Origin: an uncultured Flavobacteriales bacterium | Lineage (GTDB): Bacteria; Bacteroidota; Bacteroidia; Flavobacteriales_E; Vicingaceae | Assembly (NCBI GenBank): GCA_905479915.1 | Contig: CAJQOH010000012.1 | Span: 62,001-126,000 of the forward strand | Length of the DNA stretch: 64,000 nt | Direction: 5' to 3' | Part shown: in pieces, positions 3,908 to 39,382 of the stretch | Layout: each line of letters opens with the position of its first letter | Numbering within the stretch: the first letter of the stretch is position 1 | Notes under the pieces: model-generated | Databases searched by the model: none | The model's input: only the letters and a program-made list of their open reading frames with translations | What the model was told of the DNA's origin: nothing | Translations under genes and position numbers: made by a program

Positions 3908-6900
3908 TTATCTTAATAATGTTATATCTCCTGTTAAAGATTCTGATCTACCATCAATATATAAAACATTTATTTTATAAATATAAACGTCTTGCTTACT
4001 TAACTCATTTCTATAATAGCCATCCCAACCAATATTAACATCAGTACTCACAAACAGAAGCTCTCCCCATTTATTAAAAATACTCATTTCATACTCATCT
4101 GCTCCAATTATTATAGGATGGAACACATCGTTATCTGTATCTCCATGAGAAAATAAACCTCCATTTCCACCAGTTGTACTAGGCGTAAAAGCATTAGGAA
4201 CAGATATATCACCCTTAGACAAAGCTTCTACAGCTGACGACAACGTAAATGTATCTATACAATTATTTGGTGTTGATGCAATTAGGGTAATATCGTAAAC
4301 ACCTACTTGTGTATAAAAGTGCTGAGGAAACTCATCAGTAGAAGTGTTTCCATCTCCAAAATCCCATAAATAAGTACTTGCAAAATTTGATAAGTTAAAC
4401 AGTAAAATTGGTTCATTCGGAATAAAGACAGTCGATGGTGTAACTGTAAAAAACGCACTTGGATTTTGATAAACTTCAATAATTAGTTGTTGAGTTTGAA
4501 TATCTTGTCCTCCAGAGCCAATAACAGTTAATGTTACCGTGTACACTCCTGGGTTATAATAAGTATATTTAGGTTCAAATTGTGTTGACACTCCACCGTC
4601 TCCAAAATCCCACAAATAAGTATCTCCATATTGAGAATTATTAGAGAACTGAACTTCTAATGGTCTACAACCTTGTGCCGGTCCTTGAAAACTTGCTATA
4701 GGAACTGGAGCAATTATAGTGATTGTTTCTATTGCAGTATCAGCACAATTTGCATTACTTACAATTAGCTCAATAGGATATACTCCCCAAGTTGAATAAA
4801 CATGATTGGCAGGATTCTGCGCATTTGATAAAGTACCATCACCATAATCCCAAGCATATTGCCATGTACCTAACGAAGAGGTATTTGTTACAGCAACAGT
4901 AGTACTTGGAAAGGTTTGTGTAGTTGGGAAAGGTGTAAAAGAAGCTACAGGTGTTGCATATACCGTAATTACTTTTTGAACAGTATCAAAACATCCAAAA
5001 ACAGATTCTATAATCAAAGTAGCTGTGTAATTTACATCCAAAGTAGTTAAATTGGTATACTGATGCGAAGGATGTTGAATATTCTCTAAAGGTGATCCAT
5101 CACCAAAATCCCAAGTAAAACGAACTGCCCCAACTGAAACATCCGTAAAATCAACATCAAAGGGACTACAACCTGCAGTATCTGAATTAAATAAAGCTGT
5201 AACTGCCGGATAAACATCTACATTTTGTATTACAGTATCCATACATCCTTTTGTTGTTTCAGCAATAAGAGAAATAGGATATGTTTGCTGAACCCCAGAT
5301 GTATTTTGATAGGTATGACCAAAATTGGAGACTAAAGTATCAAATGTAGTTCCATCTCCCATATCCCAATGATATATTGAACCTCCGGTAGAAGAGTTGG
5401 TTATATTTATAGGATGAGGATGGCATCCTGCTAAAGAATCTATTGAAAATTGAGCTGAGGGATTAGGAAAAACCAATACCTGACCATAGCTAGTATCAAC
5501 ACAGTTAAATGGTGATGTAGCAATTAATTGAATGGAATAAGTAACGTTATTTGTTGTTGAGTTAATATAGATATGACTTGGTGTTGGTCCAACTCCAAAA
5601 CTCCCGTCTCCAAATGTCCATTGATACTGTACAGCTCCAATAACAGATGGAAATACCACATTAATTGGACTACAACCTGAATCAGGATTGGTACTAAACC
5701 CGAACTGTGGTTCTGGATATACCAAGACACTATCAATAACTGTATCCGTACAACCATTTATACTTGTTGCAATTAACGTAACAAAATTGTTATCTATAAA
5801 CTGAGTTAAATTATTATAGGTATGTGAAGGGTTGATAGAATTGTCCAAAGGTGTTCCATCTCCAAAATCCCAAGTATAACTAACCGCTCCAGAAGAAGTG
5901 TTTGTAAAATTCACCATTAAAGGAGCACAGTCCAATACCGCATTATTGGTAAACGATGCTGATGGATTTGGATATACTGTAACTGCTTGATAGGTAGTAT
6001 CAACACATCCAAACAAAGTTGATGAAATTAATCTAACAGTAAATGTAGTATCTACTCCAAAATTATTAATGTATGTATGCGTTGGATTTGTTGCTGTTGA
6101 AGTATTTCCATCACCAAAATCCCAAGCAAAATTTACAGCATTAGCGGATGATGTATTGGTAAAAATAACTCCTAAAGGAGAACAACCAGCGTTATTGTTC
6201 AAAGTAAATCCTGCTGTTGGAGCAGTTTCAACGGTAACCACAACAGTATCTGAAGCAGAACAAAAAGCAGTACTAACATCTAACACAACATTTACTGTAC
6301 CACCTGTTAAATAAGTATGTGTAGGGTTTTGTTGAGTACTAGAATTACTATCTCCAAAATCCCAATTCCAATTGATAATAGGATCCCCAACTGAACTAGT
6401 AGATTGATCCACAAAAAAAGCAACTTCATTTTGACAAACACTTGTAGGTATAAAACTTGGAACTGGAGACTGAAAAACATCTATTTGCTGTGTTAAACTG
6501 TGAACACAACCATTGGCACTTGTTACATCCAATTGAACATTATAATTTCCTGGAGCATTATAAAATTGTGCTGGTGGATTTGGCAGATTACTAAAGTTTC
6601 CATTATCAAAATCCCACTGCCAAGTAACTACATCAACTGAAGAAAAATCTGTATAGGTTACAGTCATACTATCACAACCATTGTTGTTATCAAAGTTAAA
6701 ATTTGCTACAGGACTTGGTAACACATGTACCGGAATGCTAGCCGTATCAGTACAACTTGCCGTTCCCCCTCCAATAAACACCGCTAATTGTATTGTATAA
6801 TCTCCTGTAAAACTATAAGTATATGAAGTTCCTCCTGCTCCCATATTCTGCCATCCTGTTCCATCTCCAAAATTCCAAGAATACGTATTTGCTCCGCCTC

Positions 6901-7942
6901 CAGATAGATTATTAAAAGTAACTGTTTCTCCTTCACAAATTGTATCCTTACTAATAGTTAAAGCCGCTGTTGGTGGTGGAACAATTTGTATTGTTACAAA
7001 TGCAGTATCCAAACCACAAAAACTACTATCTACTAACATTGCAGTATAAGTTCCTATTCCTGGATATTCCATATTTATGGGTAAAGTTGGAGGCCATGCC
7101 GTCCAATCTAAAATAGAATCATATCCTAAGCCCCAATAATCTCCTAAATTCCAGTACTCATATCGTTGAGCAATATTTCCTTGAGCCAAACAATTTCTAT
7201 TTGTTGTATTTTGTAGAGTAACCATTGTATCAGGATAACACAATAATGTTGCCGAAGCTGTAATTGCTGCATCATCAATATCCCAAATCCTAATTGGATT
7301 GAAAGTAGCTACACTTGCGCCTCCTTGCAACGTATTACATACATTTTCTGCATCTAGAGTTACTTGCGTTACACAATTAACTGTACCTTGTAAATAAGTA
7401 TGCGTAATGGTTTGTCCTGCATTAGTACTATTGAATACTTGGGGAGGCGAACCATCTCCAAAATCCCAAGTAAAAACAGTATTAATAGAAACATCTGTAG
7501 AAGAATTAATAAAATCTAAACTTCCTGGAGCACATGTACTTGTTAATCCACCAAACGGTATTTGAATTGAAGCATTAGAAGGTTCTTCCATAATAACCGT
7601 TCCTACTACCACACAAGGAACATCAGGAAGCGTAATTGTAACTGTATAGTTAGCTACTGTTGCGGTATAATTATGAGCTATAGCTGTAGGTGTTACCCAC
7701 CCATTACCAACTGTGAAAGCTGAACCATCTCCCCAATCGATAGTATAATTGCCAATATTTAAATCAGCTATTAAATTAAGGTTATAATCCGTTCCAAAAC
7801 AACTCACCCATTGCGGTGTGCCATTAAGTATACCTTGAGAATCAAAAAACTGAGGACATTGTGCAACAGCCTCTCTATTCCCAATAAATAATAGCAGGCT
7901 AAGAAGTAATAAATGACCATAACGTTTCAACATCTTTAACAT
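3908..7942 (-). CDS. Multi-PKD-domain surface adhesin with gliding-motility (type B T9SS) C-terminal domain
   Basis: A 1344-residue secreted protein built from about 13-14 PKD domains. Each is marked by a WDFGDG-like turn and a following HTY strand (for example TWDFGDGSP, AWDFGDGNTS, HWDMGDGT, LWDFGDGG). A signal peptide occupies about residues 1-27 (LLLLSLLLFIG then AVAQ). The final 90 or so residues are the CHU_C / type B sorting domain, recognisable from VPNAFTP, a gap with DTDNDVF, YEMSIFNKWGELLF, GWDGYYRN and DVYIYKINV, ending in GDITLLR. This domain directs export through the type IX system to the cell surface. Cysteines recur about once per repeat. It heads the operon with the PD40 and PorP/SprF genes. 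SprB-like adhesion or gliding is the likely role, but the ligand is unknown. Confidence 0.9.
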   Translation of the reverse strand: MLKMLKRYGHLLLLSLLLFIGNREAVAQCPQFFDSQGILNGTPQWVSCFGTDYNLNLIADLNIGNYTIDWGDGSAFTVGNGWVTPTAIAHNYTATVANYTVTITLPDVPCVVVGTVIMEEPSNASIQIPFGGLTSTCAPGSLDFINSSTDVSINTVFTWDFGDGSPPQVFNSTNAGQTITHTYLQGTVNCVTQVTLDAENVCNTLQGGASVATFNPIRIWDIDDAAITASATLLCYPDTMVTLQNTTNRNCLAQGNIAQRYEYWNLGDYWGLGYDSILDWTAWPPTLPINMEYPGIGTYTAMLVDSSFCGLDTAFVTIQIVPPPTAALTISKDTICEGETVTFNNLSGGGANTYSWNFGDGTGWQNMGAGGTSYTYSFTGDYTIQLAVFIGGGTASCTDTASIPVHVLPSPVANFNFDNNNGCDSMTVTYTDFSSVDVVTWQWDFDNGNFSNLPNPPAQFYNAPGNYNVQLDVTSANGCVHSLTQQIDVFQSPVPSFIPTSVCQNEVAFFVDQSTSSVGDPIINWNWDFGDSNSSTQQNPTHTYLTGGTVNVVLDVSTAFCSASDTVVVTVETAPTAGFTLNNNAGCSPLGVIFTNTSSANAVNFAWDFGDGNTSTATNPTHTYINNFGVDTTFTVRLISSTLFGCVDTTYQAVTVYPNPSASFTNNAVLDCAPLMVNFTNTSSGAVSYTWDFGDGTPLDNSINPSHTYNNLTQFIDNNFVTLIATSINGCTDTVIDSVLVYPEPQFGFSTNPDSGCSPINVVFPSVIGAVQYQWTFGDGSFGVGPTPSHIYINSTTNNVTYSIQLIATSPFNCVDTSYGQVLVFPNPSAQFSIDSLAGCHPHPINITNSSTGGSIYHWDMGDGTTFDTLVSNFGHTYQNTSGVQQTYPISLIAETTKGCMDTVIQNVDVYPAVTALFNSDTAGCSPFDVDFTDVSVGAVRFTWDFGDGSPLENIQHPSHQYTNLTTLDVNYTATLIIESVFGCFDTVQKVITVYATPVASFTPFPTTQTFPSTTVAVTNTSSLGTWQYAWDYGDGTLSNAQNPANHVYSTWGVYPIELIVSNANCADTAIETITIIAPVPIASFQGPAQGCRPLEVQFSNNSQYGDTYLWDFGDGGVSTQFEPKYTYYNPGVYTVTLTVIGSGGQDIQTQQLIIEVYQNPSAFFTVTPSTVFIPNEPILLFNLSNFASTYLWDFGDGNTSTDEFPQHFYTQVGVYDITLIASTPNNCIDTFTLSSAVEALSKGDISVPNAFTPSTTGGNGGLFSHGDTDNDVFHPIIIGADEYEMSIFNKWGELLFVSTDVNIGWDGYYRNELSKQDVYIYKINVLYIDGRSESLTGDITLLR

Positions 7943-26540: not shown

Positions 26541-27053
26541 TTAATTTCCACCACCAGAAGTAGGTTCTCCAACTTCACCATTACCATTGCCATTGCCCAG
26601 AGAGCCATCTCCAACACCAATAATAGGATCATTAGAAGATCCAACACCATCACCATCATTAAAGCCACCTCTTCTAGGACCAGGATTACCACCAGTACTT
26701 CCTACCCCATCATCGTCTTCATTATCATCGCCACCAATAATAGCTGAACCACCTTTACCAGTTACTGAACCAGTACCAGTTCCATCATCATCTTCATTAT
26801 CATCGCCACCGATTATATCCGAATCTCCATTACCAGTAACCGAACCATTCCCATCACCGGAACCATCTCCATTAGTACCACCATTACCTCCACCCTTTCT
26901 TAATCTCATAACAGGTTGATCATCTTGTCCAGATGAAACTGTTGTATTATCAAAATGAGGAATAGGACCTTCTTCTTTACGACAAGAAACACTTACCAAC
27001 ATTAAAAATGCTAGTAAATAAATTAGGTTATATTTCTTATAAGATCGAATCAT
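26541..27053 (-). CDS. Gly/Asp-rich repeat lipoprotein of unknown function
   Basis: A 170-residue predicted lipoprotein. The ATG at 27053 gives a basic N-region (MIRSYKKYN) and the lipobox LVSVSC, with C acylated; a TTG three codons upstream is less likely. After a short linker the protein is almost only Gly, Asp, Asn, Ser and Thr. It includes two copies of a 25-residue unit with core IIGGDDNEDDD, encoded by a 75-base direct repeat. The acidic Asp/Asn runs could bind calcium. It has no family that I recognise. Its C-terminal half is disordered in character, so it may be a flexible surface tether. It lies alone between the TonB operon and lpxK. Confidence 0.6.
   Translation of the reverse strand: MIRSYKKYNLIYLLAFLMLVSVSCRKEEGPIPHFDNTTVSSGQDDQPVMRLRKGGGNGGTNGDGSGDGNGSVTGNGDSDIIGGDDNEDDDGTGTGSVTGKGGSAIIGGDDNEDDDGVGSTGGNPGPRRGGFNDGDGVGSSNDPIIGVGDGSLGNGNGNGEVGEPTSGGGN
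26707..26856 (-). repeat. Tandem 75-base direct repeat inside the Gly/Asp-rich lipoprotein gene
   Basis: Two adjacent copies of a 75-base unit: the block starting CCATCATCGTCTTC at 26707 recurs as CCATCATCATCTTC at 26782, with a few substitutions. The period is 25 codons, so changes in copy number would keep the frame and alter only protein length. Confidence 0.75.
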
Positions 27054-35722: not shown

Positions 35723-37861
35723 TCAAAACCTCAACCTGAGCTGAGCTTTAACCTCTTGTTTATGGTTACCTTGTATTTCTTCTAATCCAGAGCTAATTAC
35801 ATTTATATTATCATAATAGGTTAATCCATAACGCAACCAAACATCAACACCCCTTACTATACTGTATTTTACAGTTAAATAAGTTCTTACTCCCCTGTTG
35901 TAATAAGCTGGAATAGAATAAGCATACAACACATCGTTTTCATAAGCATAGACCCTACTATTATAGGACTCGGTATCAAACAATCCATATCTAAAAGAAA
36001 AAGAAAAAGGGCTCTGTTTTGCCTTATAAACAACATCTTGAAATAGCAAGTAGCCTGTTTCAAACGGAGATTCTTCTTTTTCATAATTAACCAACTCTAC
36101 CCTTCCTTTTAATTTAATTGATTCTGAAACTTTATAAGAATAGTTAAAACGATAATTGGTCTGTTTCTCATGAACCAGATAATTAATTCCTTCAGTTAAA
36201 TCAATGGCTGTATTTTCTAATTTATCTCGTTCACGTATACGAATGTACATTTCCATTTTTTTAGATGCCTTATAGGTTAGCTGAGCCAAATATTGATGTC
36301 CTCTTGAAGGAGCATCAACTCCATATTTCAACCATGGAAAAGTAAATTGATCAAAGTAAGCATATAAAGTGATTTTTTTAATTGGCTTTACTACAACCCC
36401 CATATACAAACCTTCTTCATTCTGATTGGTAGATCCTTCACCTATTCCTACACTAGATATTGGTTGGAAATTTCGTTGATAATTTCTGTATAAAACCGCT
36501 ACTGACAATTTAGGGTCTAACGCAATTAATGCTCCAGAAACAAAAGCATTACCAGCATTTAAACTTTTAGAGAACTCTCCAAATATGTTAACATTTTTGT
36601 AAATCCAATTGTAATCAACACCCAAATTGGTTTGTTTATTACTAGCATTGCTAAACTGACTGTAAGCTCTTAAATTGGGGCTAAAATCACCATCCAACTT
36701 ACTTGTAACTCCTGTTAAGCCAATATTTAACCTTCTGGTTTTATAAGCCAAATGCCCTCCTATTTTTTGTTGAGTTACTACATCTTTACTTTCTAACTCA
36801 TTAAAAGTTCTATGCAACCCTGATTGTTGAAGAGATGTTACCACCAATTGCTCATTATTTCCAGATAAACTATCCATATCATTAATCGTTGCATCTATCT
36901 TATTACTGGAATAAAAAGCTGTTATATTGAATTTCCCCAATTCAAAAGTTGCTCCTCCCCCTCTTAAAAATCGATTTTCATCTACAGAGTTATAAGGGGT
37001 TAAACCCTGAGCACTTCGTTTTATTAGCATGATGTCTGCAGATTTTCCAAAAGCTCTTCCAGACCAATAGGTTAACCCTTGCCCAAACTGCGCTTGATAA
37101 TCACCGATAGCCAACTGTTTTATTCTACCCCTATTTCGAATGAATAAATGTGCAGAATAAAAATCAAAACCATTTTTTTGAGAACCTTTAAAAAATTCTT
37201 CTCCAGCGTCTTTTTCTGCAGTAAAACCAAGGCTTAAATGCCTCCCATATTTATATCTATACCTAGAATAAATTTTAGGTTCACTCCCTCTATATCTCGA
37301 ATTTGGACTAGCTGCCAAAGCAGAATCTGCTATAGGAAGATAGCCTTCTTTTTGCTCCAATGTAGTTTGATAACGAAGAAAAAAAATATTTTCTCCATTC
37401 TTTAATAATTCTTTAAAAGACAGTTGAGCATCATCCACGTCTGAAGAAATTTTTATAAAAGGAATTAACAATTTAATCGCATCTAAATCAAATCCTTCAA
37501 CAGTTTGTAGTTCTTCTAAAGCCATTAATTTACCATTCTTTTCTATGTGAACTAATAGATTATTTACTTGAATACTATTGAGCATACCTAACCCTTCTAG
37601 ATCGTTTAAATCTGCTCTATTTATATTTAATGGGTGATCATAATAATGTGAAAGCTGATCAAATAGATTAGTATAGTCAACATTAGATTCTTCTGTATCT
37701 TCAACTAAGTATTCTATCCTGTTTTCAATAACCTTAGTCTTTTCTTCTTCTTTTGATTGAGAGATAGAAAGAATTGGAGCTAGTAGTAAAATGAAAACAA
37801 GATTTTTTGAAATAACTTTACAACCGTCATTACAAACAAAGTGAAGCAATCTTAGTGTCAT
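35723..37861 (-). CDS. Helix-hairpin-helix and barrel-like outer-membrane protein
   Basis: An exported protein whose N-terminal region holds two ComEA-like helix-hairpin-helix units (NINRADLNDLEGLGMLNSIQ and LEELQTVEGFDLDAIKLLI). They are followed by about 550 residues of barrel-like strands (LSLGFTAEKDAGEEFFKG; LRGGGATFELGKFNITAFY) that end in EVKAQLRLRF. Homologues are common in Bacteroidota; the role is unknown, despite the DNA-uptake fold of the HHH part. The start is unclear. The frame runs back to an ATG at 37933 that overlaps the previous stop as TAATG, but residues 14-37 of that version are translated from a palindromic repeat. Here I use the next in-frame ATG, at 37861, which lies inside the repeat. 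The signal peptide is VISKNLVFILLLAPILSISQ. Confidence 0.7.
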   Translation of the reverse strand: MTLRLLHFVCNDGCKVISKNLVFILLLAPILSISQSKEEEKTKVIENRIEYLVEDTEESNVDYTNLFDQLSHYYDHPLNINRADLNDLEGLGMLNSIQVNNLLVHIEKNGKLMALEELQTVEGFDLDAIKLLIPFIKISSDVDDAQLSFKELLKNGENIFFLRYQTTLEQKEGYLPIADSALAASPNSRYRGSEPKIYSRYRYKYGRHLSLGFTAEKDAGEEFFKGSQKNGFDFYSAHLFIRNRGRIKQLAIGDYQAQFGQGLTYWSGRAFGKSADIMLIKRSAQGLTPYNSVDENRFLRGGGATFELGKFNITAFYSSNKIDATINDMDSLSGNNEQLVVTSLQQSGLHRTFNELESKDVVTQQKIGGHLAYKTRRLNIGLTGVTSKLDGDFSPNLRAYSQFSNASNKQTNLGVDYNWIYKNVNIFGEFSKSLNAGNAFVSGALIALDPKLSVAVLYRNYQRNFQPISSVGIGEGSTNQNEEGLYMGVVVKPIKKITLYAYFDQFTFPWLKYGVDAPSRGHQYLAQLTYKASKKMEMYIRIRERDKLENTAIDLTEGINYLVHEKQTNYRFNYSYKVSESIKLKGRVELVNYEKEESPFETGYLLFQDVVYKAKQSPFSFSFRYGLFDTESYNSRVYAYENDVLYAYSIPAYYNRGVRTYLTVKYSIVRGVDVWLRYGLTYYDNINVISSGLEEIQGNHKQEVKAQLRLRF

Positions 37862-37894
37862 AAAAATGAGATTGTTTCGTGTCTCGCAATAACG
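37825..37894 (-). repeat. Imperfect palindromic repeat element at the 5' end of the HHH protein gene
   Basis: About 70 bases. The arm at 37825 (CGTCATTACAAACAAAGTGA then AGCAATCTT) is roughly the reverse complement of the arm ending at 37894, which on the minus strand reads CGTTATTGCGAGACACGAAA then CAATCT. The arms match apart from a few substitutions and one gap around a short centre. The sequence family (GTCATTGCGAG…GAAGCAATC) resembles a dispersed extragenic palindrome that I recall from many Bacteroidota and other genomes. No second copy is seen in this window. Confidence 0.75.
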
Positions 37895-37932
37895 ACCAAA
37901 TTGAAAGCGGTTTATCTCAACTAAAAATCTCA

Positions 37933-38790
37933 TTAAATACTCAACGTACTTTTCTTTTTAGACTTCTTCTTTTTGGAATAAATAATGGAAATACCTGGAG
38001 TTACCCCCAGTGTTTGATGAAATGACGAGGATATATCAACTTTAAAGTCTTTTAATTGCATTCCAAAACCAAATGCATATTTTGATGGATTAGTAGAAAT
38101 ACCTCCTCTTAAATAAAGAATTTCAGACACATGATATTCCAAGCCAGTATTAAAAACTGGATCAAAATCTATATCTTTTTCGGTGGATACAACTAACATT
38201 ACTTTATCAGAAAAACGGTAATCCAATCCCAACTTCATAATAGTTGGAATACGTTCATTATTATAATCAGCCAAACTAGCTCTGTTAGGATTATACACAT
38301 GAACTCCCAATGAAAGTTCATTATTTAATTTGGTAATTAACCCTAAAGCTCCAGTTACAGCAGTATTACTACCATATTCTTTTGTAAGTTTTGTATTCAA
38401 ATAATTAATTTGAACTCCTAAAGAAAATTTATCTCCAAATCGCATCCCGTAGGATAATCCAGCTTTAGTTTCGTTATACAATTCAAACCCAAAAGAAGTA
38501 ACACTTAATCCCAACGCACCTCTTTTTACTGGAAAAACAAAAGCCCCTGCTTTATAGCTTGTTTCCTTTAATAAAAACCGATTTTCATAATAAATTCCTC
38601 CCGAAAAGTCTTCTATAAAACCTAAACCTGCTTGGTTATTATTAGTCGACCATACATCTGAAAGTGTCACGTTATAACCTCCCATTCCTCCAGAACGAGC
38701 TCCAATTATATCATTCCCTATTTGTGCTTGAAGTGGCTGAGAAAAGATTACTATTTGACAAAAAATTATGAATTTACAATACCTATTCAC
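37933..38790 (-). CDS. PorV/PorQ-like outer-membrane protein
   Basis: A 285-residue outer-membrane protein. The start is GTG at 38790, overlapping the PaaY-like stop as GTGAATAG. A signal peptide is present (residues 1-22, ending QPLQAQ), then GNDIIGARSGGMGGYNVTLSDVWSTNNNQAGLGF, which is the N-terminal signature of the PorV/PorQ-type barrel group. Typical strands follow (RGALGLSVTSFGFELYNE, YGMRFGDKFSLGVQINYLN, ILYLRGGISTNPSKYAFGFGM), and the protein ends in a Lys-rich tail (KKKKSKKKSTLSI). PorQ and PorV take part in T9SS export. This one is tied to a gamma-carbonic-anhydrase-like gene before it and the HHH protein after it, so a T9SS role is an inference. Confidence 0.72.
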   Translation of the reverse strand: MNRYCKFIIFCQIVIFSQPLQAQIGNDIIGARSGGMGGYNVTLSDVWSTNNNQAGLGFIEDFSGGIYYENRFLLKETSYKAGAFVFPVKRGALGLSVTSFGFELYNETKAGLSYGMRFGDKFSLGVQINYLNTKLTKEYGSNTAVTGALGLITKLNNELSLGVHVYNPNRASLADYNNERIPTIMKLGLDYRFSDKVMLVVSTEKDIDFDPVFNTGLEYHVSEILYLRGGISTNPSKYAFGFGMQLKDFKVDISSSFHQTLGVTPGISIIYSKKKKSKKKSTLSI

Positions 38791-39382
38791 CTTTAATCTT
38801 ATTCCAAGTAGTATACATTGTTTCTTGTTTAGGTCTACCCGATTCTTCTTCCCTTAATGGCTCACATTCCTTTAACGTATCGTAACAATCTTTCGGTAAT
38901 TGCTGATATAGCTGGGTTCCTTTTGTTTTCCAGGCTATCATATCATCACTTACTTCTTTTATAATTTTTGCTGGATTACCAACTAACAGGCTTCGTTTAG
39001 GCACTTCCATTTTTGCAGGAACAAAGCACAATGCACCAACAATGCATTCATCTCCCATTACTACATCATCCATTATCACACTGTTCATTCCTATTAGGCA
39101 ATTTTTACCTATAGTACCTCCATGAATAATTGCTCCATGCCCAATATGAGCACCTTCTTTCAATGTAACTGTAGTTCCCGGAAACATGTGCACCGTACAG
39201 TTCTCTTGCACATTACAGCCATCCTCAATAACTATCTTACCCCAATCGCCACGGATTGCTGCTCCTGGTCCAATATAAACATTAGCACCAATGATTACAT
39301 TTCCAGTAACTGCTGCTTGAGGATGAATAAATGCTGTTTGATGAATTATAGGCTTAAACCCATTGTACTCGTAAATTGCCAT
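38783..39382 (-). CDS. PaaY-like hexapeptide-repeat protein (gamma-carbonic anhydrase family)
   Basis: A 199-residue left-handed beta-helix protein. Hexapeptide repeats run from about residue 15 to 140 (AAVTGNVIIGANVYIGPGAAIRGDWGKIVI, HIGHGAIIHGGTIGKNCLIG). The metal-binding histidines of the gamma-carbonic anhydrase fold sit in TVHMFPG and HIGHGAIIHG. The N-terminal MAIYEYNGFKPIIHQTAFIHP and the C-terminal extension past PAKIIKEVSDDMIAWKTKG are those of PaaY, a thioesterase of the phenylacetate pathway. Other phenylacetate-type genes lie 6-15 kb to the right, which supports this reading. A housekeeping ferripyochelin-binding-like role is the alternative. It follows the OstA-like gene by nine bases. 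Confidence 0.8.
   Translation of the reverse strand: MAIYEYNGFKPIIHQTAFIHPQAAVTGNVIIGANVYIGPGAAIRGDWGKIVIEDGCNVQENCTVHMFPGTTVTLKEGAHIGHGAIIHGGTIGKNCLIGMNSVIMDDVVMGDECIVGALCFVPAKMEVPKRSLLVGNPAKIIKEVSDDMIAWKTKGTQLYQQLPKDCYDTLKECEPLREEESGRPKQETMYTTWNKIKGE

What the first reader, a model, noticed from the sequence alone, without database searches (positions are those of the whole stretch)
37825..37894. Palindromic repeat has entered the coding region of the HHH outer-membrane protein
The imperfect palindrome makes up codons 14-37 of the frame that begins at 37933. That frame has the tidiest start, an ATG overlapping the previous stop as TAATG. The repeat keeps the frame open, adds a stretch like RYCETRNNLIFMTLRLLHF, and places an internal ATG (37861) ahead of the signal peptide. 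A repeat that is normally extragenic and here is translated, or now supplies the start codon, resembles the Rickettsia palindromic elements that insert in frame in genes.
Basis: partly seen in the sequence, partly recalled or inferred. Interest (0 to 1): 0.6.

Follow-up and report, generated by a model that had tools for sequence, protein, structure and literature searches.

The report
Translated palindromic repeat in signal peptide
A short mobile palindromic DNA repeat that normally sits between genes has landed, still in reading frame, inside the export signal of an outer-membrane protein, and related bacteria show the same kind of in-frame invasion at the same spot and in several other genes.

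Summary
Window 37825-37894 (- strand) is a 70-bp head-to-head pair of CGTC-tagged REP units and forms codons 14-37 of a 736-aa HHH_3-like protein read from its TAATG start. A strict pattern finds 14 such elements in the own genome, 11 of them outside any ORF of 80 aa or more. The start codon overlapping the upstream stop is kept in 12 of 14 genomes of the genus. The stretch between it and the signal-peptide core carries REP sequence in 8 of 14 (7 clear, G011 weaker), of at least two types and in different frames, each open and in register. None of 13 loci outside the genus scored as well. After the repeat the own gene has no ATG, GTG or TTG before the mature protein, so at least part of the repeat must be translated. 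The repeat-borne ATG (37861) is not conserved. The same happens elsewhere in the genus: an EPSP synthase loop (5 of 13 orthologues, own included) and signal peptides of two lipoproteins. It works like the Rickettsia palindromic elements. Translated REPs are known, so this is a new variant: Flavobacteriales, with recurrent capture by signal peptides. Translation is inferred, not measured.

The parts
37825..37894 (-). Head-to-head dimer of CGTC-tagged REP units, read as codons 14-37
37869..37894 (-). First REP half, CGTTATTGCGAGACACGAAACAATCT
   Evidence: C12:99869-99894
37825..37852 (+). Second REP half in opposite orientation, CGTCATTACAAACAAAGTGAAGCAATCT
37859..37861 (-). In-frame ATG (codon 25) in the spacer between the two halves; absent in G001
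35723..37933 (-). Host gene: 736-aa protein with a sub-threshold HHH_3 match and a weak ComEA-like match; start codon overlaps the upstream stop (TAATG)
37760..37801 (-). Signal-peptide hydrophobic core LVFILLLAPILSIS, followed by Gln 59, invariant in the 12 sequences aligned
   Evidence: core assigned by eye
37933..38790 (-). Upstream gene, PorV/PorQ-like (67.5 bits, under the family cut-off of 90), whose stop overlaps the start
38783..39382 (-). Hexapeptide-repeat protein (best NCBIfam match PaaY, 240.6 bits, under its cut-off of 319.6) preceding the PorV-like gene

Best explanation
A CGTC-type REP dimer, a short and probably non-autonomous mobile palindrome dispersed in this Flavobacteriales genome, came to lie between the translationally coupled start codon and the hydrophobic core of the signal peptide of an outer-membrane-like protein. 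It stayed because a signal-peptide n-region tolerates almost any in-frame filler. The upstream stop and this start overlap (TAATG), ribosomes read through the repeat, and the REP-derived residues are removed with the signal peptide. Across the genus the same slot, other signal peptides and a loop of EPSP synthase hold REPs of more than one type, in frame and free of stops. Shown from sequence: repeat identity, recurrence, frame, openness, and absence of a start codon between repeat and mature protein. Inferred: actual translation, cleavage of the extension, outer-membrane location, and the mobilising enzyme (unknown).
For: Repeat dispersed in the own genome and the genus (reversed-pattern controls 0 in every genome). 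In 12 of 14 genus genomes an in-frame ATG overlaps the upstream stop; G007 has it 3 nt later, G012 lacks it. REP sequence between start and core in 8 of 14: equalled by 0 of 300 shuffles in G000, G001, G002, G004, G006, G010, G013 and by 2 of 300 in G011; in 13 outside-genus loci the best were 3 (G035), 4 (G024) and 7 (G025) of 300. Eight different extension lengths (31 to 82 aa) among the 13 with the ATG, all in frame; shuffles of the same stretch stay open in 0 to 11%. In the own gene the only later ATG/GTG/TTG codons, 25 and 29, lie inside the repeat. Parallel cases: EPSP synthase loop in 5 of 13 complete orthologues, just before the conserved DHRMAM motif, so that motif can only be reached by reading through the repeat; lipoprotein signal peptides in 3 of 14 and 3 of 13 orthologues. 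The EPSP synthase model has mean pLDDT 87.5 and its only stretch of 3 or more residues under 50 is 350-370, inside the REP insert 348-374.
Against: No ribosome profiling, proteomics or transcript data. The start could be codon 25 or 29, which would make only part of the repeat coding. The REP peptide is not conserved: first-arm differences from the consensus (RYCETRNNL against RHCEERSNL) all change amino acids, so nothing suggests that the peptide has a function of its own. Long extensions are not a mark of REPs: G003, G007, G008, G009 (43-53 aa) and the out-group G035 (68 aa) have them without a clear REP. The 14 genomes are not independent and the gene tree leaves the number of insertions open. 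The margin between G011 (2 of 300) and the best out-groups (3 and 4 of 300) is thin. The dimers are not stop-poor by nature: 10 of 60 frames open against 13.3 expected in shuffles.
Confidence: 0.85

Rival explanations
1. The repeat acts in the mRNA as a hairpin that tunes expression between the PorV-like gene and the HHH gene; translation starts downstream and the open frame is accidental. Di Nocera et al. explain many REPs at ORF starts this way.
For: Many N-terminal REPs were judged possibly non-coding and regulatory (PMC3733652, section 15). The hairpin is somewhat better than shuffles.
Against: No start codon lies between repeat and mature protein in the own gene; G010 has none after codon 2 and G004 only a TTG inside the hydrophobic core; eight extension lengths, all in frame. 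The EPSP synthase insert lies mid-gene and cannot be untranslated.
Confidence: 0.08
2. The repeat donated a new start codon (ATG at 37861), so the protein begins inside the repeat.
For: The ATG is in frame and gives a plausible signal peptide with a 20-residue n-region. In a different gene of G001 a REP-borne ATG looks like the start (by eye).
Against: G001, with a CGTC dimer at the same site of this gene, has no ATG there; the TAATG start is kept in 12 of 14 genomes.
Confidence: 0.07
3. Old inherited N-terminal extension whose likeness to REPs is chance, or a misassembly of the draft genome.
For: The window genome is a draft of 74 contigs; extensions without clear REPs exist.
Against: Copies elsewhere at E 9.2e-8 and 1.1e-6, shuffle tests, separate genomes with different REPs at the same site. 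A 70-bp repeat is shorter than a usual read (general knowledge).
Confidence: 0.02

Closest known systems
CGTC-tagged REP superfamily (Di Nocera et al. 2013, PMC3733652)
   Same: CGTC tag followed by AT, short stem-loop, head-to-head dimers, dispersed mostly between genes, some inside ORFs, no dedicated transposase known; Bacteroidetes named among five host phyla.
   Different: Unpaired tail here is CT/CTC rather than the usual CCA. In the text I read, Bacteroidetes occurs once, as a host phylum, and 'signal peptide' not at all; its supplement of intragenic REPs was not seen.
Rickettsia palindromic elements (RPE; RPE-4 and RPE-6 are CGTC REPs per PMC3733652)
   Same: Palindromic repeats inserted in frame in genes of otherwise intact proteins.
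   Different: Host is an uncultured Flavobacteriales with a 3.6-Mb genome, dimers measured here are 60-105 bp, most copies stay outside genes (2 of 63 CGTC-pattern elements of G010 in ORFs of 100 aa or more), and signal peptides recur as hosts.
GTAG REPs and REPINs linked to RAYT transposases
   Same: Short palindromes, often paired, presumed non-autonomous mobile DNA.
   Different: No GTAG tag; no REP word near the four Y1_Tnp matches of the own genome.
Enterobacterial repeat units with ORFs, found inside genes (PMC2759123; search listing only)
   Same: Small mobile repeats reported inside genes.
   Different: Other sequence families and hosts; the paper was not read.

Membership tests
CGTC-tagged REP superfamily | CGTC (or TGTC/CCTC) at one end next to a stem that starts with AT | tested here: met
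   Consensus of 10 own-genome elements begins CGTCATTGCGAG and ends CGCAATGACG; the window copy has CGTT on one side and CGTC on the other
CGTC-tagged REP superfamily | Dispersed, multicopy, mainly head-to-head dimers | tested here: met
   14 elements in the own genome, 9 fitting a dimer pattern; 63 pattern elements in G010, dimers not counted there
CGTC-tagged REP superfamily | Unpaired tail, mostly CCA | tested here: not met
   Tail is CT or CTC; the paper says most, not all, fit CCA, so this bars assignment to a published family rather than to the superfamily
CGTC-tagged REP superfamily | Stem of 8-9 bp, loop of 4-5 bp, one of four published families | tested here: inconclusive
   Arms vary from 24 to about 50 nt with swapped inner segments; Figure 2 of the paper could not be seen
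Rickettsia palindromic elements | In-frame insertion in genes for otherwise intact conserved proteins | tested here: met
   HHH protein and EPSP synthase
Rickettsia palindromic elements | Sequence family of a published RPE | not tested
   RPE sequences were not fetched; the link is only the CGTC tag as stated in PMC3733652
Rickettsia palindromic elements | Translated product seen in vivo | not testable with these tools
   Needs proteomics
GTAG REP / RAYT | GTAG tag and a RAYT gene flanked by the repeat | tested here: not met
   Tag is CGTC; no REP words (one mismatch allowed) in the fetched flanks, about 1.5 kb or to the contig end, of the four Y1_Tnp matches

The most novel reading that the evidence does not exclude
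In this genus REPs do not just land in genes but return to existing REP sites, coding ones included, through REP-to-REP replacement. A translated slot is thus refreshed with new REPs in frame, and signal peptides serve as landing pads where mobile palindromes become new n- or h-regions. Pointing to this: different REP types occupy one slot in different species; REPs are nested in REPs; and in EPSP synthase, codons with the same amino acid keep their third base in 78 of 86 comparisons in the REP but 163 of 285 in the flanks (ten non-independent pairs of five species). The last point is weakened because decayed copies would not have been recognised as REPs.
Probability: 0.25. Interest if true: 0.8.

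Novelty: new variant of a known kind. Interest (0 to 1): 0.6.

Why it matters
It gives a comparative case, outside the Rickettsiales, of mobile palindromic DNA becoming protein. Sister species with and without repeats at the same site let one test which protein positions tolerate it. It points to signal peptides as a refuge, where the insert would be discarded after export. It raises a testable question: whether translated REPs are replaced in place by other REPs. For annotation it warns that start-site callers may trim such genes wrongly.

Tried and rejected
Rejected: REP-supplied start codon in this gene (not conserved). Rejected: REP-flanked RAYT genes as the source; none of the four Y1_Tnp matches has REP words in the flanks held, which does not exclude action in trans. 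Rejected: the idea that these REPs are built without stops so as to be translatable; 10 of 60 frames open against 13.3 in shuffles. Rejected: known RNA family; no Rfam match at gathering scores in 37500-38300. Led nowhere: relatives of the gene in viral contigs (none); a whole-window repeat list, whose displayed rows do not show the repeat; a search with L146, a propeller-repeat protein with very many matches and no clear orthologues.

Results against or beside my reading: loose REP words ahead of the gene also hit 3 of 93 rows outside the genus (L109, L117, L132) against 8 of 17 rows inside it, which are 7 of 14 genomes after removing duplicate records; by my own estimate the 3 are no more than chance. 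Scores of 3 to 6 of 300 shuffles in G012 and G007, and 3, 4 and 7 of 300 in out-groups G035, G024 and G025, were not counted as REPs. A first comparison of EPSP synthase REP arms with flanks was faulty: the flank of G001 was two codons out of register, and the arms had been picked by their conserved letters.

Literature: seven searches, one of them for the literal 12-mer CGTCATTGCGAG (one unrelated paper). Judged by titles and abstract starts, none listed a paper on translated REPs in Flavobacteriales or in signal peptides. Only open-licence PMC text was searched, and the supplement of PMC3733652 that lists intragenic REPs was not available. PMC3733652: parts 1-2 of 8 of the text, section 15 and found passages read. 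PMC10969869: passages only. All other papers: search listing only.

Full report
What is there. The finding's coordinates and reading are exact. On the minus strand the gene 37933-35723 starts with an ATG that overlaps the stop of the gene before it (TAATG), and window 37825-37894 forms codons 14-37. The element is two REP units head to head: CGTTATTGCGAGACACGAAACAATCT, a spacer holding the ATG at 37861, and the reverse of CGTCATTACAAACAAAGTGAAGCAATCT. The host protein has a weak HHH_3 match (23.9 bits, cut-off 27) and a weak ComEA match (19.6 bits, cut-off 152.35); the gene before it is PorV/PorQ-like (67.5 bits, cut-off 90).

It is a dispersed repeat. A DNA search of the own genome (3.57 Mb, 74 contigs) found two more places at E 9.2e-8 and 1.1e-6. 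A pattern for one arm found 17 half-copies, control 0, which merge by position to 14 elements. Of these, 11 lie outside any ORF of 80 aa or more; the other three are the HHH gene, EPSP synthase, and a doubtful TTG-started reading ahead of a lipoyl-ligase gene. In the 14 held genomes of the genus the CGTC pattern is found in 12 (own 15, G010 75, G002 46, G001 31 half-copies) and a second REP type, GTCATNCTGAGC..TCGAAG, in 12 (own 6, G002 59, G001 19), all controls 0.

Relatives at this gene. The protein is found in 57 of 60 genomes searched, own included. In the 14 genomes of the genus, 12 have an in-frame ATG overlapping the upstream stop, G007 has one 3 nt later and G012 has none. In the 13 with the ATG the distance to a conserved residue takes eight values (31, 43, 47, 53, 54, 69, 81, 82 aa), all in frame. 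If length were free, seven changes would all be in frame with probability (1/3)^7, about 5e-4, before asking for absence of stops and ignoring relatedness (my arithmetic). Alignment to REP consensus is equalled by 0 of 300 shuffles in seven genomes (own, G001, G002, G004, G006, G010, G013) and 2 of 300 in G011. The CGTC dimer is in the own genome and G001; the second type or its variants in the other six. G006 has several units in a row, and the copy in G002 (G002:C23:13837-13857) is letter for letter a variant that appears 8 times among that genome's 59 listed matches (counted by eye). In 13 loci outside the genus the best scores were equalled by 3 (G035), 4 (G024) and 7 (G025) of 300; I count none. 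The REPs in G002 and G004 are read in different frames (DVMLSLSK against DCHPER).

Where translation must begin. In the own gene the only ATG, GTG or TTG codons after the start and before the mature part are codons 25 and 29, both inside the repeat. In G010 there is none after codon 2, and in G004 only a TTG inside the hydrophobic core. So whichever of these starts is used, REP-derived codons are translated if the protein is made.

How many insertions. The gene tree pairs the own genome with G010 (96/93) and G001 with G009 (91/95), so the two CGTC dimers are not in sister genomes. This leaves two independent insertions, or one old insertion later lost or replaced. The genus itself is not recovered as one group in this single-gene tree, so I do not lean on it.

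The same in other genes. (1) EPSP synthase (aroA): the own genome has an 80-bp dimer in frame as residues 348-374, shortly before TYDDHRMAMAF. The dimer is in the same loop, orientation and frame in G010, G007, G001 and G006, i.e. 5 of 13 complete orthologues (a 14th, G008, is cut off before the site). By eye, G002 has a different palindrome and G009 a single-arm remnant (AAGCAATCT) in the same loop. The alignment to a solved EPSP synthase places its gap within the insert, and the predicted model is confident except for 350-370. (2) A lipoprotein (L240 family): REP-derived residues such as EIASFFAMT make up part of the hydrophobic core just before the lipobox in G010, G001 and G013, 3 of 14 orthologues; the start codon of this gene is uncertain (TTG in most), and in G001 an ATG inside a REP is the likeliest start, by eye. 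(3) A second lipoprotein (L171 family): REP in the n-region in G004, G010 and G011, 3 of 13 orthologues, in two different frames; the own orthologue (MMTVFNVTIRFEAFLLLK) looks like a decayed relative of the G010 case, by eye, with no REP word found. (4) SpoIIE-type phosphatases in G007 (two REP clusters) and G005, and a CHU_C protein in G009. Still, coding copies are a minority: 13 of 75 sampled loci lie in ORFs of 80 aa or more, some of these probably chance ORFs and some loci being two halves of one element. In the census of exact CGTC-pattern copies in G010, 2 of 63 elements lie in ORFs of 100 aa or more; that census does not see decayed copies or the second type, such as those in G010's own HHH and L171-family genes.

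An oddity. In the five EPSP synthases with the dimer, codons that keep their amino acid also keep their third base in 78 of 86 comparisons within nine REP codons, against 163 of 285 in 33 flanking codons (ten non-independent pairs). The spacer between the arms has drifted (by eye). Either the REPs arrived separately at one position, or they are homogenised by other REPs of the genome, or the DNA palindrome is itself under selection; or the effect is partly one of recognition, because decayed copies would not be called REPs. In the window gene, by contrast, the first arm has drifted and all its changes from consensus alter amino acids.

Mechanism offered. Insertion by an unknown route (no REP words near the four Y1_Tnp matches), then a sieve: only in-frame, stop-free inserts at positions that tolerate filler persist. 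A signal-peptide n-region is such a position, because it needs little beyond charge and is cut off after export (general knowledge); a disordered enzyme loop is another. The sieve, not a special coding design of the repeat, explains the open frames.

Against what is known. CGTC-tagged REPs, their head-to-head dimers, their presence in Bacteroidetes, and REPs inside ORFs are described in PMC3733652, which also identifies Rickettsia RPE-4 and RPE-6 as CGTC REPs, notes that different REPs in two Xanthomonas recB genes lie at about the same site, and warns that REPs at ORF starts may be untranslated. PMC10969869 summarises in-frame RPEs. What the searches named did not list is translated REPs in Flavobacteriales or repeated capture by signal peptides. 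Hence: new variant of a known kind.

Noticed in passing
L012/L195 (G000:C23:142005-143276): Own-genome EPSP synthase carries an in-frame REP dimer at residues 348-374; the same loop is occupied in 4 more species.
   Followed up: yes
L266 (G001:C524), L240-family lipoprotein: The TTG start seen in most relatives is out of frame here, and an in-frame ATG inside a second-type REP looks like the new start codon.
   Followed up: partly
EPSP synthase orthologues of G001, G002, G004, G009, residues about 58-62 of the own protein: A second insertion of about 20 residues (e.g. VRADNDEDKTSLLDVDNYQQT in G002) at one site in four species; not recognisably REP-derived.
   Followed up: no
L020 / L003 (G000:C71:10750-10830) and G007:C181:5553-5651: A second-type REP nested inside an arm of a CGTC REP, suggesting that REPs insert into REPs.
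   Followed up: partly
G010 contigs C19, C34, C49, C90, C104, C118, C120, C123: Pairs of CGTC half-copies in the same orientation some 200-550 bp apart recur, as if framing a larger repeat unit; several G010 contigs also begin about 100-200 bp from a long-arm REP variant.
   Followed up: no
window 4314-7748: Nine to ten spaced repeats read on the minus strand as a motif like FDWGDGT (PKD-like, recalled).
   Followed up: no
window 26707-26856: Tandem pair of 75-bp repeats, 80% alike, encoding Asp-rich units on the minus strand (by eye).
   Followed up: no
L148 (G007:C181): A SpoIIE-type phosphatase with two separate REP clusters in one reading frame.
   Followed up: no
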